From an uncultured Lentisphaerota bacterium (lineage in GTDB: Bacteria; Verrucomicrobiota; Kiritimatiellia; CAIQIC01): a stretch of 64,000 nucleotides of DNA. The notes below the pieces were generated by a model. It did no database searches and had not been told where the DNA came from. It worked only from the letters and a program-made list of their open reading frames with translations. The translations under genes were made by a program, and so were the position numbers. Each line of letters opens with the position of its first letter. Positions within the stretch are counted from its first letter, which is position 1. The stretch lies in assembly GCA_903896925.1 (NCBI GenBank), contig CAITZM010000013.1:82500-146499 (forward strand), given 5' to 3'. Positions 9,755 to 31,505 of the stretch are shown piece by piece.

Positions 9755-10435
9755 TCACTTTGCGTTGGCCGGCGAGTCCTTGTTGGCTCTCGCCGGCTCG
9801 GCACCGGGCGCCAGCGGGATCAGGATCTCATTCCTGCGCAGGAACCACGGGGTGAAGGGCGGATTGTAGCGGGCCCAGACGGGGTCGCCCGCCGCGGTCA
9901 GGCTATTTTTGCTCATCCACGTTTCGAGCGCCTGCTTCTGACTCAGGTAGCGCTTTTCGCTCCAGAACCCCGAGTAGCGCACGGCGGCCATCCGGCGGGC
10001 CGGCACCTGCCGCAGTTTGACTTGCGGGTCTTCCGGCACCGGGAGCGTCTCCAGCGTATAGCCGGCCGGCATCATGAAGCTGACCGCCCACTTGTCCTGC
10101 ACCCGTTGCTGTCCGACGGGTGCCGTCATCGCGATCTTCTCGCCCGCACGTTGCTGGGCCACGGGGGCCGTCATCGCCACCTTGTTGTGCGAGCGGTTGG
10201 CGCCGGAGATATAGCGGAAGAGCTTGCCGAAGGCCTGGTTGCCGGCGTCTTCGAGGCTGCCGTCCACGATCGTTTCGGCGAGGATGTGCGGTGCGTAGAC
10301 GCGGATTTCAAAGGCGGCGTCCTGCTTTTCCAGCGTGAAAGGGGCTTCTTCGGTGGCCATGGTATTCAGTGCTCCCGTGATGCCGACGGCTGCCGCCAGC
10401 AAGATCCGCTTTGCGTTGTTCATGACCGCCGACAT
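9755..10435 (-). CDS. SOUL family heme-binding protein
   Basis: A 226-residue protein. The start at 10435 is preceded by GGGAGC at a good distance; a second ATG at 10423 is possible. A hydrophobic N-terminal signal (RILLAAAVGITGALNTMA) suggests export. The SOUL/HBP domain is clear: PFTLEKQDAAFEIRVYAPHI, then ETIVDGSLEDAGNQAFGKLF, IAMTAPVGQQ, and a C-terminal YNPPFTPWFLRRNEILIPL. The motif pair KVAMTAPV and KIAMTAPV is repeated, with a short insert (AQQRAGE) between; the usual family has one M-T-x-P-V motif. Members bind heme or porphyrin. It is the first gene of a two-gene operon with a secreted glycan-related protein. Confidence 0.9.
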   Translation of the reverse strand: MSAVMNNAKRILLAAAVGITGALNTMATEEAPFTLEKQDAAFEIRVYAPHILAETIVDGSLEDAGNQAFGKLFRYISGANRSHNKVAMTAPVAQQRAGEKIAMTAPVGQQRVQDKWAVSFMMPAGYTLETLPVPEDPQVKLRQVPARRMAAVRYSGFWSEKRYLSQKQALETWMSKNSLTAAGDPVWARYNPPFTPWFLRRNEILIPLAPGAEPARANKDSPANAK

Positions 10436-19126: not shown

Positions 19127-22100
19127 TCAAGGCGTCGCGTGCGCGGGCGCGGCGAGCACGGCTTGCGCGTGGCGGGCGTAATGGCCGTGGAGATCCTGGG
19201 CGTACTGCTTCAGAATTTTCTCGCCGAGGCCCTCGCTGTCGCCGCAGCGGTAGAGCGCGCGGGCGAGGAACAGCTCCCGCAGTTCCACCTCGCGCAGCGC
19301 GTTCTGGCTGCCCTTGCCGGGCGTGTTCTCGATCGCGGTGGTGATGTTGGTCATCGCATGGCCCATCACGCCGGGCAGCTTGAGCAGCCGCGCCAGCGCG
19401 GGCGCGGCGGCGCGGTCGCCGAGCGTCTCGCAGGCGAGCACGACGGTCCGGAAGTGGGAGAACTCGTTTGACTTCGTCGCGGTCAGCAGCGCGGCCTTGG
19501 CGAGGATCGGCTCGAGCGCGCCCGGGTCCTTGGTGCGGGCCAATGCGATGAGCTGGGCATCGAGCGGGCTGATGCTGAACCCAAACTGGCCCATGGCCTT
19601 GAACTGCCAGCCCGCATCCCACTGGTTGGTCGCCGCGACGGCCCGGGCCAGCGTCTTGGCACCCGACGCGTCGCCCATGATGCCGAGGATGCTGGCGTAG
19701 GCGATGCGTTGCTGCTCGTCGGTGCTCTGGGCGAGCGCCGCGCGCAGCAGCGGGCGCGCCGTCTCGAATTGCGCGAAGAGCACCTCAAGCTGGTCGAAGT
19801 CCTTCGTAACAGCGGCCACGGCCTTGGCGACCTGCGCGGCCGGCAAGGGGAAGCTGTCCTTCTCGCCGATGACGCTGGCGGGCAGGTTGCCTTTCTCGAC
19901 GAGCAGCTTTTGCAGCGCCGGCAGGTCGAGCTCGCGCGCCGTGCAGCCGGCCTTCGCGATCATGGCGGCGGCGAGGCCGGCGGCATAGCCCTGGTTCTGC
20001 ACGTCGGCCTCCATGCGGATGATCGGTACGGCGTCGCGGTGCGCGCTAATGCCGAGGCCGGTGACGAGGATGCCGTCGAGGCCTTTGGGCAACAGGCAGC
20101 GGTAGGGGACGCGGATGGAGAAGGCGAGCTTGTGCGGCGCGCGCAGCATGAAGACCGGATGCACGATGTAGCCGTGCGAGTCGAAGTTGCTCTTGGAGAT
20201 CACGACCGTGTCCGGGAAGCTGCGGTCGAGCATGATGTCGAGCGGCGAGAGCGTGAAGTCGCCGACGATTTGCCGGCGTTCGCGTGTGTCGATCAGCTGG
20301 CCGAGATCGTAGGCGGTCTTGAACCGCTCGCGGCCGGAGACGAGCGCGCGCCAGATGTCGTAGACGTCGGTCTCGTCCACATAGGTGTAGTCGGTGTTCG
20401 TGTATTTCTGGCCCAGGTTGCGCTGCGGCAGGCCGGTGCCCTGCACGGCGAGCTCCTCGCCGCCGACGTAGCGGCAGGCCGCGCCCGCGGCCGCAGCGAT
20501 GTCCGCGTTGCCCGTGCTGTCCACGACCATCTTGCACAGCACGACCCCGCGGCCGTGCGGCGTCGCCACGATGACGCCGGTCACGCGGCCCTGGTCGGTC
20601 ACCGCACCGACGCCGAGCGTGCCGTACCACATGTCCACGCCCGCCTTGCGCAGCTCGCGGCGATACCATTCGCTGCGGGCCTCCGGGTCCCAGGTTTTCG
20701 CGACCGGGTTGTCGCTCCCGGCGAGCAGCGCCGTGCCCGCGTCGATCTCCTTGGTGAAGCCGCAGATGTTGCCGTGGTAATAGGTGCTGATATAGCCCAG
20801 CGTGCCGACGCCGCCGAGACCGTGGAGATATTCGATGAGCAGCGTCTTCGCGCCGCGCCGGCCGGCACCGATGGCGGCGGGCGCGCCGCCCGTGCCGCCG
20901 CCGACCACGACCACGTCATAGCTGCCGAGCACCGGCAAGCCGTGCGACTCGGCGGGCACCTTGGGCGCCTGGCCGGTGCGCGGGTTGACCGCCGCGCCCA
21001 CAAACTGCGCCGCGCCGGCCGCGGCATCGCCGGGCGTCGAGCCCGCGACCTTCACGCCGGTGAGCTGCGTCCGTCCGGCCAGCTCCGCCGCCGCCGCGCC
21101 GACCCGCGCGCCGATGGCCATCAAATTGACCGGCCGCACCAGTTGCGCCGCGGCGGCGCGCGAGATATCGGCGCAGCCGCCGAGCACGAACAGCCGCTCG
21201 ACGCCCGCCGGCCGCAGCGCGTCCAGCGGGACCTGCGCGGCGCCCTGCCACGCACCTGCCACGCTTTGCATGCCATGGCAGGCGTCGGGCGGGACCTGGA
21301 ACAGCATCTCCGAGGCGTCCACCGCTTCCTTGGTCCAGGTGAGGTCGCGCGTCATCTGTTCGGCGGTGGCGAATGCAGACCAGTCCCCGCCGGCCATGCT
21401 GACCGGGATGTCGTATTCATGGATCGGATAGACCTTCCCCTTCTTGTCGGTGATCGTCAGCGGGGTGGCTCGCGTCACGAGCTTGGTCAGTTCGCTCTCC
21501 CGGGCCGGGCCGCCGACGATCGTGCGGCGGAAGATCTGCGTCTCGGCAGGGTAGGGCGCGAACTGCGCGCCCGCCAGCCGCGCCACGTTCGCGCGGTCGG
21601 TGGCGTCGATCACGACCTTGGCGCGCACCGCCTGCTGCCCGCTGCGGTTGGCGATGATCACGCCCGCCGGCTGGCCGGCCGCATCGCGCAGGATATCGGT
21701 GACGCCGCTGGCATAGAGGAAGGCGATGTTGGCCTTGATGAGCGCCTGGTCGAGCGCGCGCTTGACCTGCATCGGCGTGACCGGCCGGGGGGCGCCGGCG
21801 ACCGGTGCGGCCGTGGCGTTCCCGGCGCCCTCGACGACGACCTCTCCGAGGAGCAGCCGCGAAGAGGGCCCCGTCTTCTGCACAGCGAGCTTGAGATAGC
21901 GTGTCTGGAGCTTCAGGGGTGCGGAGATCGGCATGGCTTCGTCTTCCACCGTGCCCGCATCCAGCTTGTCGTTGGTGACCGTTATGACCGGTTGCCACTG
22001 TTTGCCGTCATGGCTGCTGCTGAGGGCGAACTTCTCGACGGCAAAATCGTCGGGCCGCTGGAAGGCCAGGAGCGAGATTTTGGTCAGCGGCAGTTCCTTG

Positions 22101-22573
22101 CCGAGGTCGATCGTCAGGGTCACATCGCCGCCGTACTCGACGCTTTGATGGGAGGCCCCGGTCCACACGCCGTCGCGGAGCAGGCTCGGCGGTGTCGTGT
22201 CCTTATGTTTGGCGGAGGGCGCGCGGTCGGCGGTGTAGGTGAAGGGCAAGCCGTCGCCGACGCCCTCGGTCAGGGGTTGGGCCTTGAAGAGCTCTTTGGC
22301 CAGCGCGGTGGTCGCTGTCTCGCCCGGTTCCAGCCAGAGCCGGTAGGTGGCGCAGATATCTTCGCCGAGGTAGGGCCGCGGCGCGACGAGGAACACTTTC
22401 GCGCCCGTCTTGGCCGCCGCCAGCGCCGCCTCGACGCCGCCCGAGGCGCCGCCGACCACGACGACGTCCACGTCCTGGATCACCGGGATCGAGTCCGCCG
22501 GTTCGATCACTTCACGCGCCATTACGCCGGCCGCCAGGCAGCCCGCCATCGCCACACATGCCAGATGCTTCAT
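19127..22573 (-). CDS. Secreted double FAD-dependent oxidoreductase with inserted discoidin-like domain and HEAT-like tail
   Basis: A 1148-residue protein. Start 22573 has GAGGAG upstream and a signal peptide (MKHLACVAMAGCLAAGVMA). Two dinucleotide-binding sites are visible: VVVVGGASGGVEAAL near residue 36 and YDVVVVGGGTGGAPAAIGAG near 551. Between parts of the first domain (about residues 125-255) lies a beta-rich insert with F5/8 type C character (DLGKELPLTKISLLAFQRP, LKLQTRYLKLAV). Each FAD part matches the FAD_oxidored family common in PVC bacteria. From about residue 960 the chain is helical and Ala-rich, with HEAT-like repeats (AAAPALARLLKLPGV). Flavin oxidation of a carbohydrate or related compound is likely; the substrate is unknown. 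Confidence 0.87.
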   Translation of the reverse strand: MKHLACVAMAGCLAAGVMAREVIEPADSIPVIQDVDVVVVGGASGGVEAALAAAKTGAKVFLVAPRPYLGEDICATYRLWLEPGETATTALAKELFKAQPLTEGVGDGLPFTYTADRAPSAKHKDTTPPSLLRDGVWTGASHQSVEYGGDVTLTIDLGKELPLTKISLLAFQRPDDFAVEKFALSSSHDGKQWQPVITVTNDKLDAGTVEDEAMPISAPLKLQTRYLKLAVQKTGPSSRLLLGEVVVEGAGNATAAPVAGAPRPVTPMQVKRALDQALIKANIAFLYASGVTDILRDAAGQPAGVIIANRSGQQAVRAKVVIDATDRANVARLAGAQFAPYPAETQIFRRTIVGGPARESELTKLVTRATPLTITDKKGKVYPIHEYDIPVSMAGGDWSAFATAEQMTRDLTWTKEAVDASEMLFQVPPDACHGMQSVAGAWQGAAQVPLDALRPAGVERLFVLGGCADISRAAAAQLVRPVNLMAIGARVGAAAAELAGRTQLTGVKVAGSTPGDAAAGAAQFVGAAVNPRTGQAPKVPAESHGLPVLGSYDVVVVGGGTGGAPAAIGAGRRGAKTLLIEYLHGLGGVGTLGYISTYYHGNICGFTKEIDAGTALLAGSDNPVAKTWDPEARSEWYRRELRKAGVDMWYGTLGVGAVTDQGRVTGVIVATPHGRGVVLCKMVVDSTGNADIAAAAGAACRYVGGEELAVQGTGLPQRNLGQKYTNTDYTYVDETDVYDIWRALVSGRERFKTAYDLGQLIDTRERRQIVGDFTLSPLDIMLDRSFPDTVVISKSNFDSHGYIVHPVFMLRAPHKLAFSIRVPYRCLLPKGLDGILVTGLGISAHRDAVPIIRMEADVQNQGYAAGLAAAMIAKAGCTARELDLPALQKLLVEKGNLPASVIGEKDSFPLPAAQVAKAVAAVTKDFDQLEVLFAQFETARPLLRAALAQSTDEQQRIAYASILGIMGDASGAKTLARAVAATNQWDAGWQFKAMGQFGFSISPLDAQLIALARTKDPGALEPILAKAALLTATKSNEFSHFRTVVLACETLGDRAAAPALARLLKLPGVMGHAMTNITTAIENTPGKGSQNALREVELRELFLARALYRCGDSEGLGEKILKQYAQDLHGHYARHAQAVLAAPAHATP

Positions 22574-22766
22574 CGGTGCTCTCCTCTGTAAAAAATGCGG
22601 CGCGAGTCTAGTCGAGCAGCGCGCGAATTCCAAGGCCGGGCACTCGCGGTCAATTAAAATAGGTGGGCCAAGCCCGCACGCCAACCAACCCATCAAGTCT
22701 TGGAAAATGAACCGCGGGCGGTTAGGCTGCGGACATGGACTCGCTTAACCAGGCACAAAGGGCAGC

Positions 22767-23141
22767 ATGAGCACCACGGCGGAGAAGATCGGCAGGGTTT
22801 GCAGCCTCGTCTTTACCGTATTCAATGCGCTGTCGTTTGGCCTCTGCCTGGTCGGCTTCCTGCGGGTCCGCGGTCACTTTGCCGGCATTTTCAAGGACAT
22901 GCTGGAGGGCGCCGCCCTGCCGGCGCTGACCGCTTTCCTGCTCAACGTGCCGGTCGCGGCGGTGCTGGTGCTGGCCGTCGTGCTGCTCGCCCTGCTCGTG
23001 GCCAAGGAGTGGCTGCGGCCGGTCTGGCTGCCGCTGATGTTGAATGCGTTCTGGCTGGCGCTGGGCTGCGTGCTGGTGCTCCTGTTCACCGCGGCCATGA
23101 TGTTGCCGCTGGTCTCCCTCATGACCGCTTTGCAGCGCTAA
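22767..23141 (+). CDS. Small membrane protein (124 aa), unknown
   Basis: A 124-residue protein beginning MSTTAEKIGRVCSLVFTVFN with AAAGGGC shortly before the ATG. Three hydrophobic segments (about 14-33, 56-80, 92-113). No family recognised. It stands alone, divergent from the FAD protein gene; a double hairpin follows it. Confidence 0.65.
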   Translation: MSTTAEKIGRVCSLVFTVFNALSFGLCLVGFLRVRGHFAGIFKDMLEGAALPALTAFLLNVPVAAVLVLAVVLLALLVAKEWLRPVWLPLMLNAFWLALGCVLVLLFTAAMMLPLVSLMTALQR

Positions 23142-23170
23142 GAGAGGGTGGAAATGGGTCACTTACGTAA

Positions 23171-23210
23171 GGGCTTCGCAAGCGAAGCCCCTACAAGGGA
23201 ACCCCTTGTA
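23171..23210 (+). terminator. Paired hairpins after the small membrane gene
   Basis: GGGCTTCGC (23171-23179) pairs with GCGAAGCCC (23182-23190), and TACAAGGG (23192-23199) with CCCTTGTA (23203-23210). No T-run follows immediately. They may act as a bidirectional stop or be a dispersed palindromic repeat. Confidence 0.45.
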
Positions 23211-23281
23211 ACTGACCGATTACGGGGTTCTTTTCTTCGCCTTGGCGGTCCGTGCCAGACCGTGTATATTCCCCGCGCACC

Positions 23282-23677
23282 ATGAAAGCTCCGTCGAAAA
23301 AAAGTGCCAAGCCGCGGGGTGTTGGGCGTGCGGGCCGGATCGAGATGAACTTTCTCGAGCAGGTCCGGCGTCGCTGTCCGGCCTATCGTCCGGTCAATGA
23401 AGTGCTCGGCGACCTGTATACCAAGGTCGGCCGGTTCGAGGACGGCCTCAACGTGGATCTGTCGCTGACCCGGACGCATCCGGACGATCCCTACGTCTGG
23501 TATAACCTCGGCTGCAGTTATTCGTTGACCGGTCGCAAGGACGATGCCTTTGCGGCGCTCGGCCGCGCGGTGGACCTAGGCTATGCGGACTTCGAATGGT
23601 TCATGAAGGACGACAACCTCACCAGCATCCGCGGCGACATGCGTTTCTTCAAGCTCCTGCTGCGCATGAAGCCGTGA
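23282..23677 (+). CDS. Small TPR-like protein (131 aa)
   Basis: A 131-residue soluble protein with a basic N-terminus (MKAPSKKSAKPRGVGRAGR) and two TPR-like helix pairs, RPVNEVLGDLYTKVGRFEDG and DPYVWYNLGCSYSLTGRKDD, followed by DDAFAALGRAVDLGYADFEW. The end (DDNLTSIRGDMRFFKLLLRM) matches the tail commonly found after TPR repeats. The start at 23282 has no clear ribosome site. Probably a cytoplasmic protein-interaction module; partners unknown. Confidence 0.75.
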   Translation: MKAPSKKSAKPRGVGRAGRIEMNFLEQVRRRCPAYRPVNEVLGDLYTKVGRFEDGLNVDLSLTRTHPDDPYVWYNLGCSYSLTGRKDDAFAALGRAVDLGYADFEWFMKDDNLTSIRGDMRFFKLLLRMKP

Positions 23678-23808
23678 AGCATGGTTGATGGTGCGTGGTT
23701 GATGGGGAAGGGTGGATGGCCGAACGAAGCGTGAAGTGATGGGCCGAAAACCCTCAACGTGTAGCGCAAGCGTTGACGTCTACGGTTTCTTTTTCAGAGG
23801 TGTGCCCC

Positions 23809-24345
23809 ATGAATGATTTATCGGATGTGGTGCTTTCCGGCCGCATGCGCGTCATCACCGGCGACATCACCAAGCTGGCGGTGGAGGCCATCGTCAATGC
23901 GGCCAACGGCACGTTGCTCGGCGGTGGCGGCGTGGATGGCGCGATCCATCGTGCTGCTGGGCCGCGGTTGCTCCTCACATGCGCCACGCTCGGCGGCTGC
24001 GCCACAGGTAATGCGAAGGTCACCCCCGGCTTCCGGCTGCCCTCCAAGTGGGTCATCCACACCGTCGGCCCGGTCTGGCATGGCGGTGAAAAAGGCGAAG
24101 ATGATTTGTTGGCCGCCTGCTATCGCAACAGCCTGCGCCTCGCGCGCGACAACAACATCCGCACCATCGCGTTCCCCGCGATCAGCACCGGCGTCTACCG
24201 CTTCCCGCTCGACCGCGCCACGCGCATCGCGGTGCAGACCGTCCGCGCGGAACTGGCGGGGCAGGCTTTGCCGGAGCAGGTCACCTTTGTCGCCTTCAGC
24301 TCCGAGGCCCGCGCCGCCTACGAGCGCGAACTGGCCGGCGCGTGA
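23809..24345 (+). CDS. Macrodomain protein (O-acetyl-ADP-ribose deacetylase-like)
   Basis: A 178-residue cytoplasmic protein. Start 23809 ([13 protein letters not shown]) is preceded by AGAGGTG; an upstream ATG at 23773 is in frame but lacks a site. The MacroD/YmdB-type motifs are clear: [20 protein letters not shown] (ADP-ribose binding), [15 protein letters not shown] (catalytic loop) and [17 protein letters not shown] (phosphate loop). It removes ADP-ribose or the acetyl group of O-acetyl-ADP-ribose by family function. It lies just beyond the distal end of the integron array and on the opposite strand, so it is probably not a cassette gene. Confidence 0.92.
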
Positions 24346-24396
24346 GCATCGTGGGATTTCGAGCGTTGTGAACAGCAGAGGTGTTCTTGCTAAAGC

Positions 24397-24468
24397 TTTG
24401 AACGACCGCGCTCAGGGTTGAGGTGAACCGCCGCGGTTCACCGAATACCCTGCTGCGCTTGGTTCGAT
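24397..24468 (-). other. attC site of cassette D (last in the array)
   Basis: Read on the minus strand: R'' ATCGAAC (24468-24462), imperfect arms, R' GTTCAAA (24403-24397). On the plus strand, CAGGGT+GGTGAACC (24413-24429) pairs with GGTTCACC+ACCCTG (24435-24452) around a 3x4 internal loop, and outer GCGC pairs with GCGC. R'' is the exact reverse complement of the GTTCGAT that opens this cassette at 24842. The R' end is the least canonical, in line with an old array end. Confidence 0.75.
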
Positions 24469-24819
24469 GCTCTCTTCGAGTTTCCTCAGTAACGCTTTGA
24501 CTTTCTCAAGTCCCGCTTCGTTGTAAATCCATTTCTCTTGCATCTTTGGATCGTCACGATGGCAAAGGTCATCTTGGTCCTCCATTTCAAAACATGCCTT
24601 CCGGATATCCTCCTGGATTGAGTCGCGCTTAAGTGGGATGTGGGTGAAGTCATCCCATTCGTGCCAGGACATTGTTCCATCCAGCACGCGCCGTAGTTTC
24701 TGTACAACGTCCCCTTTGGATGGATAGTTAGGATGCAGACGATCACGAATGACCATGATTATGAATGCAATGACGAGTATGGCGGCTGGAACGCAGAGAA
24801 CTATGAATAACCATTTCAT
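24412..24819 (-). CDS. Integron cassette D gene: membrane-anchored hypothetical protein (135 aa)
   Basis: A 135-residue protein. Hydrophobic N-terminus MKWLFIVLCVPAAILVIAFI acts as a single membrane anchor. The rest is acidic and soluble (LDGTMSWHEWDDFTHIPLKR, YNEAGLEKVKALLRKLEESI). Its start is 17 bases after the attC core that opens the cassette. The 3' end runs into attC1, so the last ~19 residues are written by the recombination site. It has visibly lower GC than the flanks. No known family. Confidence 0.72.
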   Translation of the reverse strand: MKWLFIVLCVPAAILVIAFIIMVIRDRLHPNYPSKGDVVQKLRRVLDGTMSWHEWDDFTHIPLKRDSIQEDIRKACFEMEDQDDLCHRDDPKMQEKWIYNEAGLEKVKALLRKLEESIEPSAAGYSVNRGGSPQP

Positions 24820-24835
24820 GTCTTATTATTAATGC

Positions 24836-24897
24836 ATCGAACGTCTCGGCTGACTTTGCGCGAGTCTTCGAGCGTAAAGTCCAGCCGATTGTTGGGC
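24836..24897 (-). other. attC site of cassette C
   Basis: A 62-base site. Minus strand: R'' GCCCAAC (24897-24891), R' GTTCGAT (24842-24836). On the plus strand CGGCTG-ACTTT pairs with AAAGT-C-CAGCCG, with one unpaired C. On the minus strand this is an extra base in the L'' arm, the position expected of attC sites when the array reads leftward from the integrase. Confidence 0.88.
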
Positions 24898-24899
24898 TT

Positions 24900-25427
24900 C
24901 TATCTTACGGATTCTGGTTGAGCGCTATTATCGGTCGTCGCATTTATCGCGTCACATATTTTGGAGATCATGACGATGCTGATGATATAATTGACCACAA
25001 GAATAATTTGCCCGATCACTGGTATCCAAGTCAGGAAACACATGATTACGTTGGCAAGAAATAGACCCTCTGGTAGGCGCGCCGCTTTAGTTCCGTGCCT
25101 TTCAACATAAGCATTGTAATCCTTTGAGAATCCCCAAATGACCTGAAATGCCCAGTAAATATTGTAAAAGGGCACGAACATCATTCCGATGGCTTTTCCA
25201 GCTGTTGTTCGCGCATGTCCGTCTTGGATTGACGCCCACATCTTGTAATAGAGTACCATCATGACAATAGCACCGTACAGCATTGGAATGTAGGAGAAAC
25301 CTATCATCTGAAGCGCGTCCGAGTCTCCACTTTTGGCTTTTATCGTTCCAAGAATCACGAGGACATCCGCTATCCCCAAGCCGACAGCGATAGACCCCAA
25401 GAAGAATCCCTTCGATATTTTGTTCAT
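24900..25427 (-). CDS. Integron cassette C gene: multi-pass membrane protein (DUF4328-like)
   Basis: A 175-residue protein with four hydrophobic segments (about residues 7-27, 42-62, 83-98, 127-158). Motifs YYKMWASIQDGHARTTAGKA and VPFYNIYWAFQVIWGFSKDY are ones I associate with small PVC membrane proteins, which often carry GYF- or DUF4328-like parts; the family name is tentative. AAAGGAAAA precedes the start. The TAG stop is 2 bases from attC2. Lower GC than the flanking chromosome supports acquisition. Confidence 0.8.
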   Translation of the reverse strand: MNKISKGFFLGSIAVGLGIADVLVILGTIKAKSGDSDALQMIGFSYIPMLYGAIVMMVLYYKMWASIQDGHARTTAGKAIGMMFVPFYNIYWAFQVIWGFSKDYNAYVERHGTKAARLPEGLFLANVIMCFLTWIPVIGQIILVVNYIISIVMISKICDAINATTDNSAQPESVR

Positions 25428-25461
25428 CTCATTTTCCTTTTTGTTCTCTTTTTGTTTTGTT

Positions 25462-25522
25462 GCCCAACGTCCGGCCTCTGGTTCGCGAGCTTGCGAGTGT
25501 AACCAGCAGGCCGTTGTTGTGC
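25462..25522 (-). other. attC site of cassette B
   Basis: A 61-base site. Minus strand: R'' GCACAAC (25522-25516), R' GTTGGGC (25468-25462). On the plus strand CGGCCT-CTGGTT pairs with AACCAG-C-AGGCCG, again with a single unpaired C in the plus-strand right arm. The terminal loop is about 17 bases. Confidence 0.9.
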
Positions 25523-25524
25523 GG

Positions 25525-26052
25525 TCATCTTGCCTCTTTCATGACACAGTCGAGACAACTTGTCCTGTTTTCCAAATACTGGAAGCCACCGATGCGGCCG
25601 CAAGCAGAGCCTTCCGGCAGTTCCATGTCCACCTTGTACGTGATGGGAAACACAGCCGCCGGCGTCTTGCGCCCCAAGGCAAGATAAGCGTCGGCAATCT
25701 CCTTGTCCTTGGGCTTCATGCCTCCAAACCAGAATCCAACTTGTCCCGACTTCGTGAGGATGACGGGTTGCCGACGGGCGTTCCCATCTCTGTCACCGTC
25801 GATCTTGATGATACCGTCGTCTGGCAATCCAGAGACTGTCACAGTTCCTATGGCGGCGGTTCCATCCGCGAGTTGAAACCGTGCCCGTACCATGTACGAC
25901 GAATGCTGAAGGTCGATTTCCTCGATAGCGACCGGTCTGACGGTGGCTTCGTCCTGCCCATGCTCCCCTTCTTCGTCCAGGGCGTATTCCCACACCGGGT
26001 GCCGAGCGACGTCATCGAGTGTGAGACCGTAGACTTGTTTTCTGATCTTCAT
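25525..26052 (-). CDS. Integron cassette B gene: hypothetical protein (175 aa)
   Basis: A 175-residue soluble protein starting MKIRKQVYGLTLDDVARHPV. AGAAGAG precedes the ATG, which is 10 bases from the attC core opening the cassette. It contains WEYALDEEGEHGQDEATVRP and a beta-rich middle (TVTVSGLPDDGIIKIDGDRD). A C-terminal Cys pair (SCLDC) could bind metal. The TGA stop is 2 bases from attC3. I do not recognise a family with certainty; gene cassettes commonly encode such proteins. Confidence 0.78.
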   Translation of the reverse strand: MKIRKQVYGLTLDDVARHPVWEYALDEEGEHGQDEATVRPVAIEEIDLQHSSYMVRARFQLADGTAAIGTVTVSGLPDDGIIKIDGDRDGNARRQPVILTKSGQVGFWFGGMKPKDKEIADAYLALGRKTPAAVFPITYKVDMELPEGSACGRIGGFQYLENRTSCLDCVMKEAR

Positions 26053-26062
26053 CTCTTCTCTC

Positions 26063-26133
26063 GCACAACGTTACGCCTCACCGGATTCCGAACCCGCCGC
26101 GGGTGAGGAATACGGTGGAGGCGATGGTTCGCC
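26063..26133 (-). other. attC site of cassette A
   Basis: A 71-base site. Minus strand: R'' GGCGAAC (26133-26127), R' GTTGTGC (26069-26063). Plus-strand arms GCCTCACCGGATTCC (26075-26089) and GGAATACGGTGGAGGC (26107-26122) pair along their whole length with one extra base and one mismatch. It lies partly inside the 3' end of the cassette A gene. Confidence 0.85.
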
Positions 26134-26640
26134 CTTCTTCATGAAGTTTGAGTAAAGCAGAACCAATTCATCAAGAGTCCGCGGCAACTCGGTCTCCAGA
26201 GTCTTGATCTCGGCGATGAGTCCACCGAAATCGAATGAGGTCTTTCCCGTCAATCTCGATCCTGCCAATCCAAGAAGAGTCATTAACTTCATGTATGATC
26301 GAGTGAAAGTCCCCAGTTTCAGAACTTGCGAATCTGGTTCGTACTCATCGGCTGTAGGCCACACTGTCGCGTAGCGGATCTCCAGCTCCTTTTTTTTGAG
26401 GCGAAGGGTTATCTCGGGCTTTTCACGGAGTGTCGCCAGGTACGTGTTGAATTGATCAAAGACCGGTCGAAGGTTCTGATTCGGGCCAGAGAGAGAGCGG
26501 CAGTAGCCGCATACGAAGACGCGTTGAATGTCTGCACCGTATTGTCCAGTGATACGACTCGTGAGCCAACGCGACAGAAGAGATGATGCTCCATCAGGTC
26601 CAAACCGTTTATAGTCCTTCCAGTATAGCTCGAATTCCAT
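26071..26640 (-). CDS. Integron cassette A gene (first cassette): hypothetical protein (189 aa)
   Basis: A 189-residue soluble protein, MEFELYWKDYKRFGPDGASS at the start, with GAGG 6 bases before the ATG. A mostly helical middle (FTRSYMKLMTLLGLAGSRLT, TLETELPRTLDELVLLYSNF). The C-terminus is low-complexity Pro/Ser (PSPPPYSSPAAG), and this part is encoded by attC4, so it is probably a by-product of the recombination site. No known family. As the cassette nearest attI and Pc it should be the best expressed of the four. Confidence 0.78.
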   Translation of the reverse strand: MEFELYWKDYKRFGPDGASSLLSRWLTSRITGQYGADIQRVFVCGYCRSLSGPNQNLRPVFDQFNTYLATLREKPEITLRLKKKELEIRYATVWPTADEYEPDSQVLKLGTFTRSYMKLMTLLGLAGSRLTGKTSFDFGGLIAEIKTLETELPRTLDELVLLYSNFMKKGEPSPPPYSSPAAGSESGEA

Positions 26641-26651
26641 TGTAGTCCTCA

Positions 26652-26700
26652 GGCGAACATCATATTAGGCTTCAAAAATATTGCGCTGAAATTTAGTTGC
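26652..26700 (-). other. attI primary recombination site of the integron
   Basis: On the minus strand GTTCGCC (26658-26652) is the core, and cassette A begins with TTCGCC. It is the exact reverse complement of R'' of attC4 (GGCGAAC), which closes that cassette. The site lies between the cassette promoter and the first cassette gene, as attI should. The outer limit toward 26700 is approximate because attI sites lack the attC hairpin. Confidence 0.72.
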
Positions 26701-26704
26701 GGGC

Positions 26705-26733
26705 ATGATAGGCCTCAATTCGCGCGTTGACAA
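26705..26733 (-). promoter_or_regulatory. Candidate cassette promoter Pc
   Basis: On the minus strand TTGTCA (26733-26728) and TATCAT (26710-26705) are separated by exactly 17 bases, a near-consensus sigma-70 promoter. It fires toward the cassettes from the intergenic region beside the integrase start, the usual Pc location. The overlapping plus-strand TTGACA at 26727-26732 could be part of the integrase promoter, but I see no good -10 for it. Confidence 0.68.
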
Positions 26734-26787
26734 TACGTGAGTTATGAAACAATCTGATGCATAGCAAAATATTCACGGAGGAATGAT

Positions 26788-27684
26788 ATGCCTCAGACAG
26801 AGCGTCGAGTGGTGGCGCCGGTGAATACGGAGCCGAAGTGGCCGGAAGGGTTCGTGGCGATTCTGCGGGAGGCCGGGGCCAAGGAGGTGACCATCCCGTA
26901 TTGCGTGACGTGGGTGCGTCGGTTCTTCGCCCAGCATCCCGCCCGGCGGAGGCAGGACTTGGGGCGCACGGAGATCGAGGCCTTCCTGTCCAAGGCAGCG
27001 ACGTTTCCGGGGATCTCGAACTGGCAAGTTCAGCAGGCGCGCAACGCACTGGAACTGTACTACGAACAGTTCCGCGGCATCCCGCTCGCCCCACGCCCCG
27101 GCCTTGCGCCTGGCCCTGTTTCATGTTCCCGAAATACCTCCTCGGGCGAACAGGTGGCACCCGCCATGCCGTGTCCGCTCCCAACGCGCAAAGGGTATGC
27201 CGGAACTTCGGTGAGTGACAAGCCCAAACCTATACGCAACGGGACAGCGGTGGGCCTCGTTGCGGTTCGACCCCAGGATGCCAAGTGCGCCACGTCAGAT
27301 GCGCCCGGCCTCCTTCCGGGTTCATCGTCCAGCCCTGTCGCCCCGGTCGTGCTGCCGGCTGCCCAGCACTGCGACTGGCGGGCGCTGGATCACCGGGTGC
27401 GGGAACGCCTGCGGGTCGAGCACTATTCCTATCGGACCGAGCATGTGCTTGAGTTGCGGATCCAGCGCGCGGTGCAGGAGGCGGTGCGGGCGGCGGGGCT
27501 GACGATCCGCTTCACGCCCCACTGCTTCCGCCACAGCTTTGCCACGCACTTGCTGGAGGCGGGACAGGACATTCGGACAGTGCAGGCCTTGCTTGGCCAT
27601 TCGGACGTAAAGACCACGATGATCTACACGCACGTTCTCAATCGCGGGCCGCAAGGGGTCGTCAGTCCGGTGGACACCCTCTGA
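26788..27684 (+). pseudogene. intI: Integron integrase (tyrosine recombinase) with large in-frame internal deletion
   Basis: GGAGG lies 6 bases before the ATG. Residues 1-95 form a complete SAM-like core-binding domain ([19 protein letters not shown], then [19 protein letters not shown]). A poor linker (about 100-190) follows, then [17 protein letters not shown], the start of the second SAM-like domain. It then jumps directly to [12 protein letters not shown] and the last part of the catalytic domain: [17 protein letters not shown] (HxxR), [20 protein letters not shown] (Tyr nucleophile) and [10 protein letters not shown], an end typical of IntI. The segment that carries the first catalytic Arg and the Lys is missing, an estimated 200 or more residues at about 27445-27465. 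The gene diverges from the cassettes, as in true integrons. Probably inactive. Confidence 0.83.
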
Positions 27685-27871
27685 TGGTGCCGGGGCGAGG
27701 CACTGCGAGCGCGGCAGCCGCACCGGACAGCGTGTGCAGCTTGGAGTCTCAGCCGGACCACCTCTTCCGCGTTCTGAGGCTTCAGGGATGGATAGCGCCC
27801 GTTGAATACCAAGCCAGTCATCGGTCACCAGCCGAACCCTGGACGGGACAACTAACCAAGCCGGGCGAACC

Positions 27872-28201
27872 TCAGCGTGGTGCCGGAGGCGCGGCATCCG
27901 CGTCGCCGGCCGCCGGGGCTGGGGCCGGTTTTTCCGCAATCTTTTTGGATTTTGGCGCTGCGTAGGTGAACAACTCGGCGAGGGCATACGTTTTGCCCGT
28001 GGCTTTGATCAAGGCCTTGAGGAGCTTGGCTTGCACGTTGGGGGTCAACCACCTCCCTTTGCACGCCCGCGACACCATCTTGTGCGTGAGGTGTTCGGCT
28101 GAGTTGGCGACCAGGTCGTGGGGCTTGAGGCCCAGTTCCAGCATGATCTGCGCGATCGGTTGCGCTCCCAGGTTCCGCTCATTATCGGTGGTTAGTTCCA
28201 A
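27872..28201 (-). CDS. Small conserved hypothetical protein (109 aa), TTG start
   Basis: A 109-residue soluble protein. The start is TTG at 28201, with AAGAGG a few bases upstream. No ATG lies upstream in frame, and the first downstream Met would drop conserved-looking sequence. The core is helical (AQPIAQIMLELGLKPHDLVA, then HLTHKMVSRACKGRWLTPNV and KALIKATGKTYALAELFTY) and resembles a small helix-turn-helix or RNA-binding fold. The tail is Pro/Ala-rich (APAPAAGDADAAPPAP). I recall similar proteins in PVC genomes, without a function. It lies between the integrase remnant and the Nudix gene. Confidence 0.68.
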   Translation of the reverse strand: MELTTDNERNLGAQPIAQIMLELGLKPHDLVANSAEHLTHKMVSRACKGRWLTPNVQAKLLKALIKATGKTYALAELFTYAAPKSKKIAEKPAPAPAAGDADAAPPAPR

Positions 28202-28283
28202 AACGCCTCTTCTCCGGTTGGTGCCGGTGCTTTATTCGTAAACACAAGGGACAGGGTAGGTAGACAACGCCGTCTTGACAAGC

Positions 28284-28775
28284 TCACAGGTCCACTTCGC
28301 AGCCGAGCATCAGGTCGTCCTGGAAGAGGAACCGCGCGGTGAACGGCCGGCCTGCCAGGAGGAGCGGCATCCAGATGCGGTCGTCGGCCCACATCTGGTG
28401 ATAGGGCAGGGCGGCGGTGGGGCGCCAGGTCGGCAGCGCCTCGTCGGTTTCCTGCGGCTCGCCCGTGAAGCCGGTCGCGGTGAAGACATAGCCGTGGATC
28501 GAGAACCCGTCGACAAACTGGAACAGCAGTTCGCCCGCGGGCCGGATGCCGGTGGGTGTGACGCAAATTTCCTCCTGCGTTTCGCGGATGGCGGCGGCGA
28601 GCGGCGTCTCGCCCGCCTCGAGGCGGCCACCGGGCCCGTTGATCTTGCCCGCGCCCAGCCCGCGCTTCTTGTGGATCAGGAGGATCTGCTCGTCGCGCAG
28701 GATGAACATCAGCGTCGCCCGCTCCTTGGGTTGCCAGGCAGTCCAGTCCAATGCGGTGAATTTGTCGTAGCGCAT
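28284..28775 (-). CDS. Nudix hydrolase (MutT/MTH1-like)
   Basis: A 163-residue cytoplasmic protein. The start at 28775 excludes an unlikely upstream extension. The Nudix box is intact: GRLEAGETPLAAAIRETQEE, around residues 51-71, fitting Gx5Ex7REUxEE. The N-terminal part LMFILRDEQILLIHKKRGLG followed by AGKINGPGG resembles MTH1-type 8-oxo-dGTP diphosphatases, and so does the C-terminal ADDRIWMPLLLAGRPFTARF with its FLFQDD end. Likely a sanitizer of oxidised purine nucleotides; the precise substrate is inferred. Confidence 0.92.
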   Translation of the reverse strand: MRYDKFTALDWTAWQPKERATLMFILRDEQILLIHKKRGLGAGKINGPGGRLEAGETPLAAAIRETQEEICVTPTGIRPAGELLFQFVDGFSIHGYVFTATGFTGEPQETDEALPTWRPTAALPYHQMWADDRIWMPLLLAGRPFTARFLFQDDLMLGCEVDL

Positions 28776-28819
28776 GGCGGGAGTGTAGCGGGATGATGGA
28801 CCCACGCCCAAGAAGAATT

Positions 28820-28945
28820 TCACCACAGAGGACACAGAGTCTTGAAGGAGGTCACAGAGCTTTGTTGAATAGAGCGGGCAGGAACGCGCCAGGAACGAGC
28901 TGGCTCTGCGAACCTCTGTCCTTCTCTGCGCCCTCTGTGGTTGCG
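28820..28945. repeat. CACAGAGG-type inverted repeat spacer
   Basis: CACCACAGAGGACACAGAG on the plus strand at about 28821-28840 faces CTCTGCGCCCTCTGTGGTTG at about 28926-28945. The two form a long imperfect inverted repeat between the convergent-side ends of the Nudix and Crp/Fnr genes. Similar words fill 7030-7200. Confidence 0.6.
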
Positions 28946-28948
28946 CTT

Positions 28949-29617
28949 TTACAGGCTTGGGAAACGGCCGGCGCGGGCCTGCCAGTAGCCGGCGGGAAAG
29001 CGGATGGTGCGGCCGGCCCAGACGATCTTCTGCTGTTTCTTGAGACGCGGGATCAGGCGGGAGAGCGTCTCCGGCGTGACGCCGATGGCGGCGGCGATGT
29101 CCTTCTTGGAGATCGCGGTCTGCATGAGGTCGCGCGGGCCGTGCTGCTCGCGCAGGAAGGCCAGTAGGCGTGCCGCGACGTCCTGCGAGCTGAGCTGGCG
29201 GATGCGCTCGGTCAGGTAGCGCTGCTTGCGCATGAGCATGGCGATGAAGTCGCGCCGGAAATCGGCGCTGCCCAGCAGCTGCTGGATGTCCTGGCGCAGG
29301 AAGACGTAGAGGCGGCAGGCGGTGAGGGCCATGGCGTTGACGGGGTAGCGGTCCTCCTCGAAGAGCACGACCTCGGCGAAGGTCTCGCCGGGCTTGACGA
29401 TCTTGATGACGACCTCCGCCCCGTCGGGCGCGGTCTTGAAGAGCTGGAGGTTGCCGCTGGCGAGCAGGAACAGGCCCTCGCCGCGGTCGCCCTCGCGGAA
29501 GAGCTGTTCGCGCTTGCGCAATTCGCGCGCGCGGCAGATGCCGGCCAGTGCCATGCGGCTTTGCGGAGCGAGGCCCTGGAAGAACGTCGCCTGGGCGAGG
29601 ATGGCTGTCTTGTCCAT
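28949..29617 (-). CDS. Crp/Fnr family regulator (Dnr/HcpR-like)
   Basis: A 222-residue transcription factor. Start 29617 has AGGAG 6 bases upstream. Cyclic-nucleotide-binding fold at residues 15-125 (FREGDRGEGLFLLASGNLQL, PGETFAEVVLFEEDRYPVNA), dimer helix near 130-150, and a winged helix with recognition helix VTPETLSRLIPRLKKQ. The E-x-x-S-R pattern fits FNR-type TTGA half-sites. It lacks the N-terminal cysteines of an oxygen-sensing FNR, so a Dnr/HcpR-type sensor of NO or redox is likelier. It is divergent from hcp, and the palindrome at 29735-29750 lies between them. It probably controls hcp and perhaps itself. Confidence 0.92.
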   Translation of the reverse strand: MDKTAILAQATFFQGLAPQSRMALAGICRARELRKREQLFREGDRGEGLFLLASGNLQLFKTAPDGAEVVIKIVKPGETFAEVVLFEEDRYPVNAMALTACRLYVFLRQDIQQLLGSADFRRDFIAMLMRKQRYLTERIRQLSSQDVAARLLAFLREQHGPRDLMQTAISKKDIAAAIGVTPETLSRLIPRLKKQQKIVWAGRTIRFPAGYWQARAGRFPSL

Positions 29618-29734
29618 AGGTGCTCCTGATGCTTTCCCCGCTCTGTCGCCAGGCGTGCGGTGGCGGCCGATCTTCCGCTTCGCACTCCGGGCACAGCGGT
29701 GGGAAAAATTACTGTGGGAAGAAAAGCGCCTTTT

Positions 29735-29750
29735 CTTGACCCAAGTCAAG
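29735..29750. promoter_or_regulatory. FNR/HcpR-type operator in the hcp upstream region
   Basis: CTTGACCCAAGTCAAG is a perfect 16-base palindrome with TTGAC half-sites spaced by 4 bases, the typical spacing of Crp/Fnr family sites. It lies 100 bases upstream of hcp and 118 bases upstream of the divergent regulator start. Confidence 0.82.
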
Positions 29751-29849
29751 AATTCCCGCCGGGCCTGCGCGTAGAGTCGGGGCGTGACAGCAACTTGAAT
29801 TTGTCCGGCGCATGGCCGGGGAAACCATAACCCAGAAGGAAACCAGACG

Positions 29850-31505
29850 ATGAGTATGTTCTGTTATCAGTGCGAGCAGGCGGGCAAGGGCACCGGCTGC
29901 GACCAGTTCGGCGTGTGCGGCAAAGATCCGGAAACCGCGGCGCTGCAGGATCTGCTGATCCACGCGGCGCAGGGCGTCAGCCAGTACGCGCACCGCGCGC
30001 GGCAGCTGGGCGTGAAGGACCGCGATGCGGATGTCTTCGTCATCGAGGCGCTGTTCACCACGGTCACCAACGTCAACTTCGACCCCCAGCGGCTGGAGCA
30101 GCAGCTGGGGCACGCCGTCGCCGTGCGCGACAGCGTCCGTCGGCAATATGAAGCGGCCTGCCAGGCGCGCGGCCAGCAGCCCGAACAGCTCGCCGGCCCG
30201 GCGGCGTGGCGTCCGGCCAGCGACGCGAACGCGCTCGTGCGCCAGGGCGAGGAACTGATCACCGACAAGCGCATCGCCCTGCTCGGCGCGGACCTCGTCG
30301 GCCTGCAGGACCTGCTGCTCTTCGGCCTCAAGGGCACCGCCTCCTATGCCGATCATGCGCTCATCCTGGGCAAGGAAGATGACGGCGTCTTCGCGTTTTT
30401 CCACGAGGCTCTCAACTACCTGACGCTGCCGAATCCGCAGGTCGGCGACCTGCTCGCCTGGAACCTCAAGTGCGGCGAAGTCAACCTGAAGGTCATGGAG
30501 CTGCTCGACGCCGCCAACACCGGCGCCTACGGCAACCCCGTCCCGACCAAGGTCCGCGTCACGCCGGTCAAGGGCAAGGCCATCCTCATCTCCGGCCACG
30601 ATCTCTCGGACCTCGAGGAGCTGCTCAAGCAGACCGAGGGCAAGGGCATCAACATCTACACCCACAGCGAAATGCTGCCCGCCCACGGCTACCCCGGGCT
30701 CAAGAAGTTCAAGCACCTCGTCGGCAACTACGGCGGCGCGTGGCAGGACCAGCGCAAGGAGTTCGAAGCCTTCCCGGGCGCGATCCTGATGACGACCAAC
30801 TGCATCCAGAAGCCCAAGGATGACTACAAGGCCCGCATCTTCACCAGCGGCCTGGTCGCCTGGCCCGGCGTCACGCACATCGGCGACCGTAACTTCAAGC
30901 CGGTCATCGAGGCCGCGCTCGCCGCGCCGGGCTTCGAGCAGGACGGTGCGGACCAGGAGATCCTCGTCGGCTTTGGCCACAACGCGATCCTCGGCGCCGC
31001 CGATCAGGTGATCAGCGCCGTCAAGGCCGGTGCGATCAAGCGCTTCTTCCTCATTGGCGGCTGCGACGGCGCCAAGAGCGGCCGCAACTACTACACCGAG
31101 TTTGCGCAGGCCGTGCCGAAGGACTGCGTGATCATGACGCTCGCCTGCGGAAAGTACCGCTTCAACAAGCTCGACTTCGGTACGATCGGCGGCTTGCCGC
31201 GCCTGCTCGACTGCGGCCAGTGCAATGACGCCTACACGGCCATCAAGGTCGCCGGCGCGCTCGCGGGCGCCTTCGGCTGCGGCGTCAACGACCTGCCGCT
31301 CTCGCTCGTGCTGTCGTGGTACGAACAGAAGGCCGTCTGCATCCTGCTGACGCTGCTCTTCCTCGGCATCAAGAACATCCGGCTGGGCCCGAGCCTGCCG
31401 GCGTTCGTCACGCCCGCGGTGCTGAACGTGCTCGTCGAGAAGTTCAACATCAAGCCCATCACCACGGTCGAGGCTGACTTGCCCGCGGCGCTGGCCGGGA
31501 ACTGA
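29850..31505 (+). CDS. hcp: Hybrid cluster protein (hydroxylamine reductase / NO reductase)
   Basis: A 551-residue Fe-S protein. The N-terminal ligands CYQCEQAGKGTGCDQFGVC (Cys 5, 8, 17, 23; spacing CX2CX8CX5C) are the [4Fe-4S] type of anaerobes, not the [2Fe-2S] type of enterobacteria. Hybrid-cluster ligands are visible: SGHDLSDLEELL (His), THSEMLPAHGYPG (Glu), TTNCIQK, GGCDGAKSG, ACGKYRF and CGQCNDAYTA (Cys residues), and WYEQKA (Glu). Hcp reduces NO or hydroxylamine and protects from nitrosative stress. The divergent Crp/Fnr gene and the operator are upstream. A terminator at 31661 separates it from ahbA. Confidence 0.97.
   Translation: MSMFCYQCEQAGKGTGCDQFGVCGKDPETAALQDLLIHAAQGVSQYAHRARQLGVKDRDADVFVIEALFTTVTNVNFDPQRLEQQLGHAVAVRDSVRRQYEAACQARGQQPEQLAGPAAWRPASDANALVRQGEELITDKRIALLGADLVGLQDLLLFGLKGTASYADHALILGKEDDGVFAFFHEALNYLTLPNPQVGDLLAWNLKCGEVNLKVMELLDAANTGAYGNPVPTKVRVTPVKGKAILISGHDLSDLEELLKQTEGKGINIYTHSEMLPAHGYPGLKKFKHLVGNYGGAWQDQRKEFEAFPGAILMTTNCIQKPKDDYKARIFTSGLVAWPGVTHIGDRNFKPVIEAALAAPGFEQDGADQEILVGFGHNAILGAADQVISAVKAGAIKRFFLIGGCDGAKSGRNYYTEFAQAVPKDCVIMTLACGKYRFNKLDFGTIGGLPRLLDCGQCNDAYTAIKVAGALAGAFGCGVNDLPLSLVLSWYEQKAVCILLTLLFLGIKNIRLGPSLPAFVTPAVLNVLVEKFNIKPITTVEADLPAALAGN

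What the first reader, a model, noticed from the sequence alone, without database searches (positions are those of the whole stretch)
24397..27684. Chromosomal integron with four gene cassettes in a PVC-type genome
A tyrosine recombinase with IntI features at 26788-27684 faces away from four minus-strand genes. Each gene is followed within a few bases by, or runs into, a 61-72 base imperfect palindrome bounded by RYYYAAC- and GTTRRRY-like cores. The extra unpaired base falls in the arm expected for attC. The layout intI, attI, Pc, cassettes is the textbook integron order, in a lineage where few integrons have been studied.
Basis: partly seen in the sequence, partly recalled or inferred. Interest (0 to 1): 0.9.

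Follow-up and report, generated by a model that had tools for sequence, protein, structure and literature searches.

The report
Gene-capture array with dead integrase
This uncultured bacterium carries four gene cassettes beside an integrase gene that lacks 216 codons, two catalytic positions among them, which its intact relatives have, so the array is likely frozen, while a sister species holds one different cassette at the same spot.

Summary
The four cassettes are real. A covariance model built only from attC sites of relatives finds exactly four sites in 64 kb, all on the minus strand: 26063-26133, 25462-25522, 24836-24897, 24397-24468 (E 4e-12 to 1e-6; next E 0.6). The start of each cassette is the exact complement of the R'' box of its own attC (16 of 16 variable bases). 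A sister species has one unrelated cassette between the same attI and the same array end, so the refuting case, a conserved operon, fails. Intact relatives have about 480-515 aa and two SAM-like domains; the window copy has 298 aa, lacks 216 codons in frame with catalytic Arg1 and Lys, and scores 156 bits on the integron-integrase profile (cut-off 265), where four intact relatives score 444-455. The sister's integrase is cut by a different deletion. Best reading: a sedentary chromosomal integron of a PVC bacterium, inactivated, its array now likely locked. Integrase decay is well documented (PMC2426708, PMC3108266, PMC12444791), so this is a new member of a known kind; it adds a lineage attI motif and two separate integrase losses in related species.

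The parts
26788..27684 (+). intI remnant, 298 aa: first SAM-like domain (about 26788-27099), linker, start of the second SAM-like domain, then a deletion joint near 27455 and the C-terminal end with H, R, H, Y
   Evidence: Pfam PF13495 at residues 25-99 and PF00589 only positions 101-169 of 172; TIGR02249 156.5 bits, cut-off 265; four intact relatives 444-455 bits; 648 nt missing against L057; Arg1 and Lys absent
26658..26787 (-). attI and leader; predicted crossover between G 26658 and T 26657, 130 bp from the intI start
   Evidence: R''-predicted box GTTCGCC found once between the first attC and intI; conserved in the sister and in its second copy up to G|TT and the shared TTCG, then diverges
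26705..26733 (-). promoter-like site TTGTCA-17-TATCAT, candidate Pc
   Evidence: consensus scan, 1 found against mean 0.3 in shuffles; identical in the sister, second hexamer changed in the sister's C173 copy; no test of function
26069..26657 (-). cassette 1, 589 bp; ORF 26071-26640 (189 aa) reads into its attC
   Evidence: borders from G|TT and R'' complement; 11 relatives; no Pfam match
26063..26133 (-). attC of cassette 1 (its last 6 bases belong to cassette 2)
   Evidence: R1 40.9 bits; R2 54.8 bits, E 4.4e-12
25468..26068 (-). cassette 2, 601 bp; ORF 25525-26052 (175 aa)
   Evidence: 358 relatives at E <= 0.001; one weak PADLOC match, NsnC E 0.0012
25462..25522 (-). attC of cassette 2
   Evidence: R1 40.2 bits; R2 47.8 bits, E 3e-10
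24842..25467 (-). cassette 3, 626 bp; ORF 24900-25427 (175 aa)
   Evidence: matches to DUF4870 and DUF4328 below the Pfam cut-offs
24836..24897 (-). attC of cassette 3
   Evidence: R1 38.1 bits; R2 49.1 bits, E 1.3e-10; 49 bp identical to a site in G002
24403..24841 (-). cassette 4, 439 bp; ORF 24412-24819 (135 aa) reads into its attC
   Evidence: no Pfam match
24397..24468 (-). attC of cassette 4, with one mismatch in the L stem; its R' GTTCAAA is the fixed end of the array
   Evidence: R2 34.3 bits, E 9.6e-7; missed by R1; same R' in the sister
24346..24402 (.). backbone between the array end and the macro-domain gene
   Evidence: 24346-24404 is 96.6% identical to the sister, 57 of 59

Best explanation
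Window 24403-26657 holds four gene cassettes, each ending in an attC site, beside an integrase gene that lacks 216 codons kept by its intact relatives, so this is most likely an inactivated chromosomal integron with a frozen array. Inferred past mechanism: the full-length integrase recombined the folded bottom strand of attC of circular cassettes with attI at 26658|26657, the newest cassette lying next to attI. Shown: the attC sites, the cassette borders, the attI junction and a different array in the sister species. Inferred: a deletion at a 2-base match (CA) removed most of the second SAM-like domain and of the catalytic core in frame, Arg1 and Lys included, which would end excision and insertion by this gene. 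The cassettes are predicted to be read from the Pc-like site at 26733-26705. The sister species lost its integrase by a different deletion, so the two losses are likely independent.
For: attC: models R1 and R2 built from relatives' sites, folds. Borders: adjacent R''/R' complement 12 of 12 bases in the window and 54 of 68 at the other joints, against 70 of 176 for non-adjacent pairs, and 4 of 4 at attI. attI: predicted box found once in 11 of 13 loci, 120-152 bp from intI, with a shared motif. Orientation: 34 of 35 R2 matches in relatives lie on the strand opposite the integrase and on its 5' side. Different array in the sister between the same borders. Integrase deletion. Same joint in metagenome protein P0002. 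No gene of the own assembly over the TIGR02249 cut-off.
Against: No recombination assay. R1 misses the 24397 site, and two R2 seeds are near copies of window sites. One relative (L052) has an attC on the same strand as, and downstream of, its integrase match. 2 of 13 loci gave no attI box. The assembly is 94.75% complete and scores open stretches apart, so an intact integrase elsewhere is not excluded; the sister carries another integrase match over P0001 198-513 on C41. The remnant ORF is open and its first SAM-like domain intact. The deletion is known here from one assembly and one short metagenome contig.
Confidence: 0.87

Rival explanations
1. The integrase is dead in cis, but the cassettes still move in trans, served by another integron integrase in the unassembled part of the genome or brought in by transfer.
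For: attC sites are well formed. Further attC sites lie on C52 (two), C93 and C32. Near copies of window attC sites sit beside other genes in other genomes. The sister has another integrase match, on C41.
Against: No gene in the own assembly passes the integron-integrase cut-off (0 of 17 matches).
Confidence: 0.12
2. The remnant is kept for a function: its first SAM-like domain binds attI and represses the platform, or it acts as a dominant-negative partner.
For: The ORF stayed open through the deletion. P0069, P0083 and P0108 have other internal gaps with both ends kept (a biased sample, since the query itself was deleted). Between window and sister the first SAM-like domain differs by 3 synonymous and 1 non-synonymous codons of 104.
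Against: Of 11 named loci without the full catalytic set, 7 have the first SAM-like domain itself broken, 2 hold only part of it and 2 hold it intact. The noncoding attI part is 97.8% identical too, so the low divergence needs no protein function. P0002 carries amino-acid changes in the retained second-domain piece.
Confidence: 0.05
3. The integrase is functional and this is a complete, active integron, as the finding's text implies.
For: Layout, attC, attI and divergent orientation are all in place.
Against: Arg1 and Lys and most of the catalytic domain are missing; 156 against 444-455 bits for intact relatives.
Confidence: 0.02
4. The deletion in intI is an assembly artefact and the living cell has a full-length gene.
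For: Draft genome of 191 contigs; 2-base match at the joint.
Against: A metagenome protein from another source has the same joint (P0002, 97% over 172 aa).
Confidence: 0.03
5. Four genes of an ordinary operon with hairpins between them.
For: The genes are colinear and close; the crude hairpin scan does not separate the sites from shuffles.
Against: The orthologous locus has none of the four genes; box rule and covariance models.
Confidence: 0.01

Closest known systems
Inactivated chromosomal integrons of Xanthomonas (PMC12444791, passages)
   Same: intI lost by truncation in separate lineages, cassette arrays left behind and species-specific
   Different: other phylum; short-type integrase (recalled); there studied over many genomes, here two related species
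Long integron integrases, 'clade 15' of Nemergut 2008 (PMC2426708, passages)
   Same: integrases longer than the usual IntI; here the extra length is a second PF13495 domain. That paper also found about a third of intI genes to be pseudogenes
   Different: clade 15 is deltaproteobacterial and about 120 aa longer; whether the PVC long integrases belong to it was not tested by a tree
CALIN (attC clusters lacking an integron integrase; IntegronFinder 2, PMC9024848, passages)
   Same: attC array without a working integrase beside it
   Different: here an integrase remnant and attI are still in place
Class 1 integrase IntI1 (search rows)
   Same: residues 216-298 are 62.7% and 61.4% identical to the two of eight listed rows that are annotated IntI1
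   Different: the window protein lacks the middle of the enzyme and has an added N-terminal domain that TIGR02249 does not cover

Membership tests
Integron (complete, functional) | attC sites: R''-L''-L'-R' hairpin with extrahelical base on the L'' arm | tested here: met
   four sites, R2 E 4e-12 to 1e-6; folds
Integron (complete, functional) | attI beside intI, cassettes inserted at G|TT | tested here: met
   predicted box found once, 130 bp from intI; same place in 11 of 13 loci; junction shared with the sister
Integron (complete, functional) | array content varies between relatives while the platform is shared | tested here: met
   four cassettes against one unrelated cassette at the orthologous locus
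Integron (complete, functional) | integron integrase with the catalytic set R-K-H-R-H-Y and full catalytic domain | tested here: not met
   Arg1 and Lys absent, 216 codons missing; 156.5 bits against a cut-off of 265, four intact relatives 444-455. Therefore filed as an inactivated integron, not as a complete one
Integron (complete, functional) | promoter Pc reading into the cassettes | tested here: inconclusive
   one consensus match, mean 0.3 in shuffles
Integron (complete, functional) | integrase-dependent excision and insertion of cassettes | not testable with these tools
   needs an assay
CALIN | two or more attC sites and no integron integrase as IntegronFinder calls it | not tested
   IntegronFinder is not among the tools; whether its profiles would accept the remnant is unknown
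Long IntI 'clade 15' (PMC2426708) | shared descent with the deltaproteobacterial long integrases | not tested
   no tree built; two Deltaproteobacteria loci (L071, L073) hold the first SAM-like domain

The most novel reading that the evidence does not exclude
In this PVC lineage integrons run through capture-then-lock cycles: a platform block only 1-3% diverged between two species (attI, first SAM-like domain, first part of the linker, array end; the six neighbouring genes compared differ by 9-27%) holds completely different arrays, and each species has destroyed its own integrase by its own deletion. Integrase loss would then be selected as the step that fixes a useful array.
Probability: 0.2. 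Interest if true: 0.55.

Novelty: new member of a known kind. Interest (0 to 1): 0.36.

Why it matters
It gives an attC model and an attI motif for integrons of a PVC lineage (no held paper with integron, Kiritimatiell* and attC together), and a pair of related species whose arrays differ and whose integrases were lost in different ways. That makes the old question of why integrases decay so often testable in another lineage. The general phenomenon, loss of intI with the array left behind, is already documented.

Tried and rejected
A crude AAC-stem-GTT scan did not separate attC from shuffles; it was replaced by a stricter grammar and then by covariance models. MAFFT alignments A3 (10 sites) and A5 (4 sites) were set aside for A4 (6 sites), because A3 misaligned the arms of several short sites. 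Rfam gave one match, sR32, below its gathering score. PADLOC gave one weak match for cassette 2 (NsnC, E 0.0012, 16.3 bits) and none for the other four proteins given; I do not read it as a defence gene. A retained function of the remnant was considered and judged unlikely. In one search I left out 9 of the 35 hits (eight that stand alone in their locus, L052 among them, and the partial hit L060:4167) and added two C52 and four window sites. In one search two near copies of the window (L055, L043) were left out of the motif count, and the two loci without a box (L074, L058) were not in it. The whole-genome attC searches scored 150 of 4162 and 150 of 4492 candidates, so the number of attC sites elsewhere is a lower bound. 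The junctions of G001 and G005 were not read, only compared by BLAST. No structure prediction was made.
Full report
Place. The window is G000:C13:82500-146499 of a 7.2-Mb draft genome (191 contigs, 94.75% complete). The best named hit of the integrase N-terminus is the MAG 'uncultured Lentisphaerae bacterium Loclat_bin-07389'; its contig has the length of G003:C11 (69,496) and carries the same locus, so I take it for the same-genus genome G003. Of the 24 named loci, 15 are Lentisphaerae, Victivallales, Kiritimatiellae/-ales/-aeota, PVC or Verrucomicrobia by name, 5 are only 'bacterium', and 4 are others (Clostridiales, two Deltaproteobacteria, Poribacteria) (records of the window's own genome may be left out there).

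attC sites. Read by eye on the minus strand, each site has AAC, a 5-bp stem, one extra base on the L'' arm, a second 5-bp stem, TA, a variable terminal part, and the return arms ending in GTT; the site at 24397 has one mismatch in the first stem. I built model R1 from six sites of relatives found with a strand-neutral grammar. One of these seeds is the attC of the sister's orthologous locus; none is from the window. R1 finds three window sites at 38-41 bits and misses the one at 24397; the next match has 9.9 bits, E 2.1. In 33 loci of relatives R1 gives 21 matches at E <= 1. Model R2, built from these 21, finds four sites in 64 kb: 54.8, 49.1, 47.8 and 34.3 bits; the next has 12 bits, E 0.6. 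Caveat: two R2 seeds are near copies of window sites (L065:6489 is 95% identical to the 26063 site, L045:12048 shares 49 identical bp with the 24836 site), so for these two R1 is the independent test. For the 25462 and 24397 sites BLAST showed no near copy in the fetched loci. Unfiltered scoring of 20000-30000 gives the same four, then 8.6 bits. Bottom-strand folds have z-scores of -3.5 to -4.8; 1, 0, 0 and 0 of 200 shuffles fold as well. Of 35 R2 matches in relatives at E <= 0.1, 34 lie on the strand opposite the integrase match and on its 5' side; L052 is the exception.

Cassette borders. The crossover G|TT predicts that the first bases of a cassette complement the R'' box of its own attC. 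In the window this holds for 12 of 12 variable bases at the three inner joints and 4 of 4 at attI. Over all 20 adjacent joints examined it holds for 66 of 80 bases (54 of 68 without the window), against 47 of 80 for R'' and R' of one and the same attC and 70 of 176 for non-adjacent pairs. The cassettes are 589, 601, 626 and 439 bp. The same rule gives the attI of relatives: in 11 of 13 loci, window included, the predicted 7-mer occurs exactly once between the first attC and intI (0.02-0.13 expected), at 120-152 bp from the integrase start. Nine of these (two near copies of the window left out) share TAT...TGA.G...AATA..ATG|TT at 70%. L074 and L058 gave none.

Sister locus. Window 20001-24404 and 27884-28816 align with G003:C11. 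Between them the sister has one cassette with a 146-aa ORF and no tblastn or blastn match to the four, ending in an attC with the same R' GTTCAAA as the last window attC. On the attI side the two loci, and a second copy in the sister (C173), agree up to G|TT and a shared TTCG and then diverge. In a third genome of the genus (G002) the same neighbourhood has macro-domain, transketolase and NUDIX genes and no integrase match.

Integrase. The 298-aa ORF matches PF13495 once and only positions 101-169 of 172 of PF00589, and scores 156.5 bits on TIGR02249 against a cut-off of 265. Four intact relatives (P0001, P0090, L057, L062; 486-515 aa) score 444-455 bits over nearly the whole profile; P0001 and P0090 carry two PF13495 stretches and most of PF00589. 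Against the intact L057 gene the window lacks 648 nt, 216 codons in frame, at a joint with a 2-nt match CA; P0001 gives the same number, residues 219-434. Of the six catalytic positions the window keeps H, R, H and Y and lacks Arg1 and Lys. A metagenome protein (P0002, 97% over 172 aa, contig of 681 bases) has the same joint, which speaks against an assembly error. The sister copy is cut differently: first SAM-like domain and linker, then sequence that in the window lies downstream of the gene (P0074). Of 24 named loci that hold the first SAM-like domain or part of it, 13 keep all six catalytic residues and 11 do not. In 7 of these 11 (L056, L070, L072, L074, L075, L076, L077) the domain itself is broken, in 2 (L069, L078) partial, in 2 (L055, L059) intact. 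No match in the own assembly reaches the TIGR02249 cut-off (0 of 17 matches); that call scores open stretches apart and has no positive control among its 14 genomes, so it is weaker than a search of a closed genome.

Mosaic. Between window and sister, identity is 97.8% in the attI/Pc part, 98.7% in the first SAM-like domain, 96.7% in the first 61 bp of linker and 96.6% in the 59 bp after the array, but 70.4% in the next 71 bp of linker and 73-91% in the six neighbouring genes compared. In 40-base steps identity rises at about 24320 and falls at about 27160; some steps of the NUDIX gene and the stretch 27880-27919 also reach 95-98%. I read this as a recent exchange or conversion of the platform with later, separate changes of array and integrase; this is inference from two draft genomes, and a slower rate of change in that block is not excluded.

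More attC in the genome. C52 has two sites, C93 and C32 one each. The first C52 site and the C93 site have an upstream box complementary to their R''; the C32 site has none within 3 kb, and the second C52 site matches the R' of the first. The C93 and C32 sites end in TTTAGGC and GTCCACA instead of GTT-type boxes. The searches scored 150 candidates each, so this is a lower bound.

Cassette genes. Cassette 1 has 11 relatives; P0241 (91%) shares the attC-encoded tail, while the seven other tails printed differ. Cassette 2 has 358 relatives at E <= 0.001; of the 120 listed, those with a name are hypothetical proteins. Cassette 3 has DUF4870 and DUF4328 matches below their cut-offs; cassettes 1, 2 and 4 have no Pfam match. 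No function is assigned.

Literature, as seen. Nemergut 2008 (PMC2426708, passages): about a third of intI genes are pseudogenes; clade 15 integrases are about 120 aa longer by one fusion. Cambray 2011 (PMC3108266, passages): 43% and 46% inactivated, with Lentisphaera araneosa in supplementary legends. Xanthomonas (PMC12444791, passages): repeated lineage-specific inactivation. Natural History of Integrons (PMC8618304, passages): Verrucomicrobiota listed. PMC8352920 (passages): attC models for 11 taxa, Planctomycetes included, with no occurrence of Kiritimatiell*, Lentisphaer* or Verrucomicrob* in the main text. IntegronFinder 2 (PMC9024848, passages): CALIN definition. Searches for integron + Kiritimatiell* + attC returned 0 papers and integron + Kiritimatiell* returned 6, by their listed titles resistome, microbiome or diversity papers (listing only). 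The library is open-access only.

Verdict. Real integron platform with four cassettes; dead integrase; likely frozen array. New member of a known kind.

Noticed in passing
G000:C52:156515-156585 and C52 157032-157091 (L104:6016-6086, 6533-6592): Two attC sites in a row without an integron integrase match beside them: a small attC cluster elsewhere in the same genome.
   Followed up: partly
G000:C93:38240-38295 (L105:5241-5296) and G000:C32:6548-6617 (L092): Single attC-like sites. The C93 one follows a 323-aa ORF without a Pfam match; the C32 one lies just after a BrnT toxin-like gene (PF04365).
   Followed up: partly
window 26063-26133 and L065:6489-6559; window 24836-24897 and L045:12048-12110: Nearly identical attC sites sit beside different genes in other genomes (95% over 66 bp; 49 identical bp).
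   Followed up: partly
window 24320-27160 against L042: Platform block 97-99% identical between two species whose neighbouring genes are 73-91% identical, with an unlike array inside.
   Followed up: partly
L069:10001-11641 (Victivallales MAG, CAILUI010000240.1): A piece of the first SAM-like domain lies in one open frame with a short-chain dehydrogenase.
   Followed up: no
L052:4507-5445, 5695-6504 and 9912-9989 (G036): Two integrase matches in a row and an attC on the same strand downstream: the reverse of the usual orientation.
   Followed up: no
window 26658-26735, minus strand: TTGAGGCCTATCATG and TTGAAGCCTAATATGATG look like degenerate direct repeats in attI; the first overlaps the second hexamer of the Pc-like site (seen by eye).
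   Followed up: no
L093:7610-9604 (G002): A transketolase gene (PF00456) lies where window and sister carry the integron, between macro-domain and NUDIX genes.
   Followed up: partly
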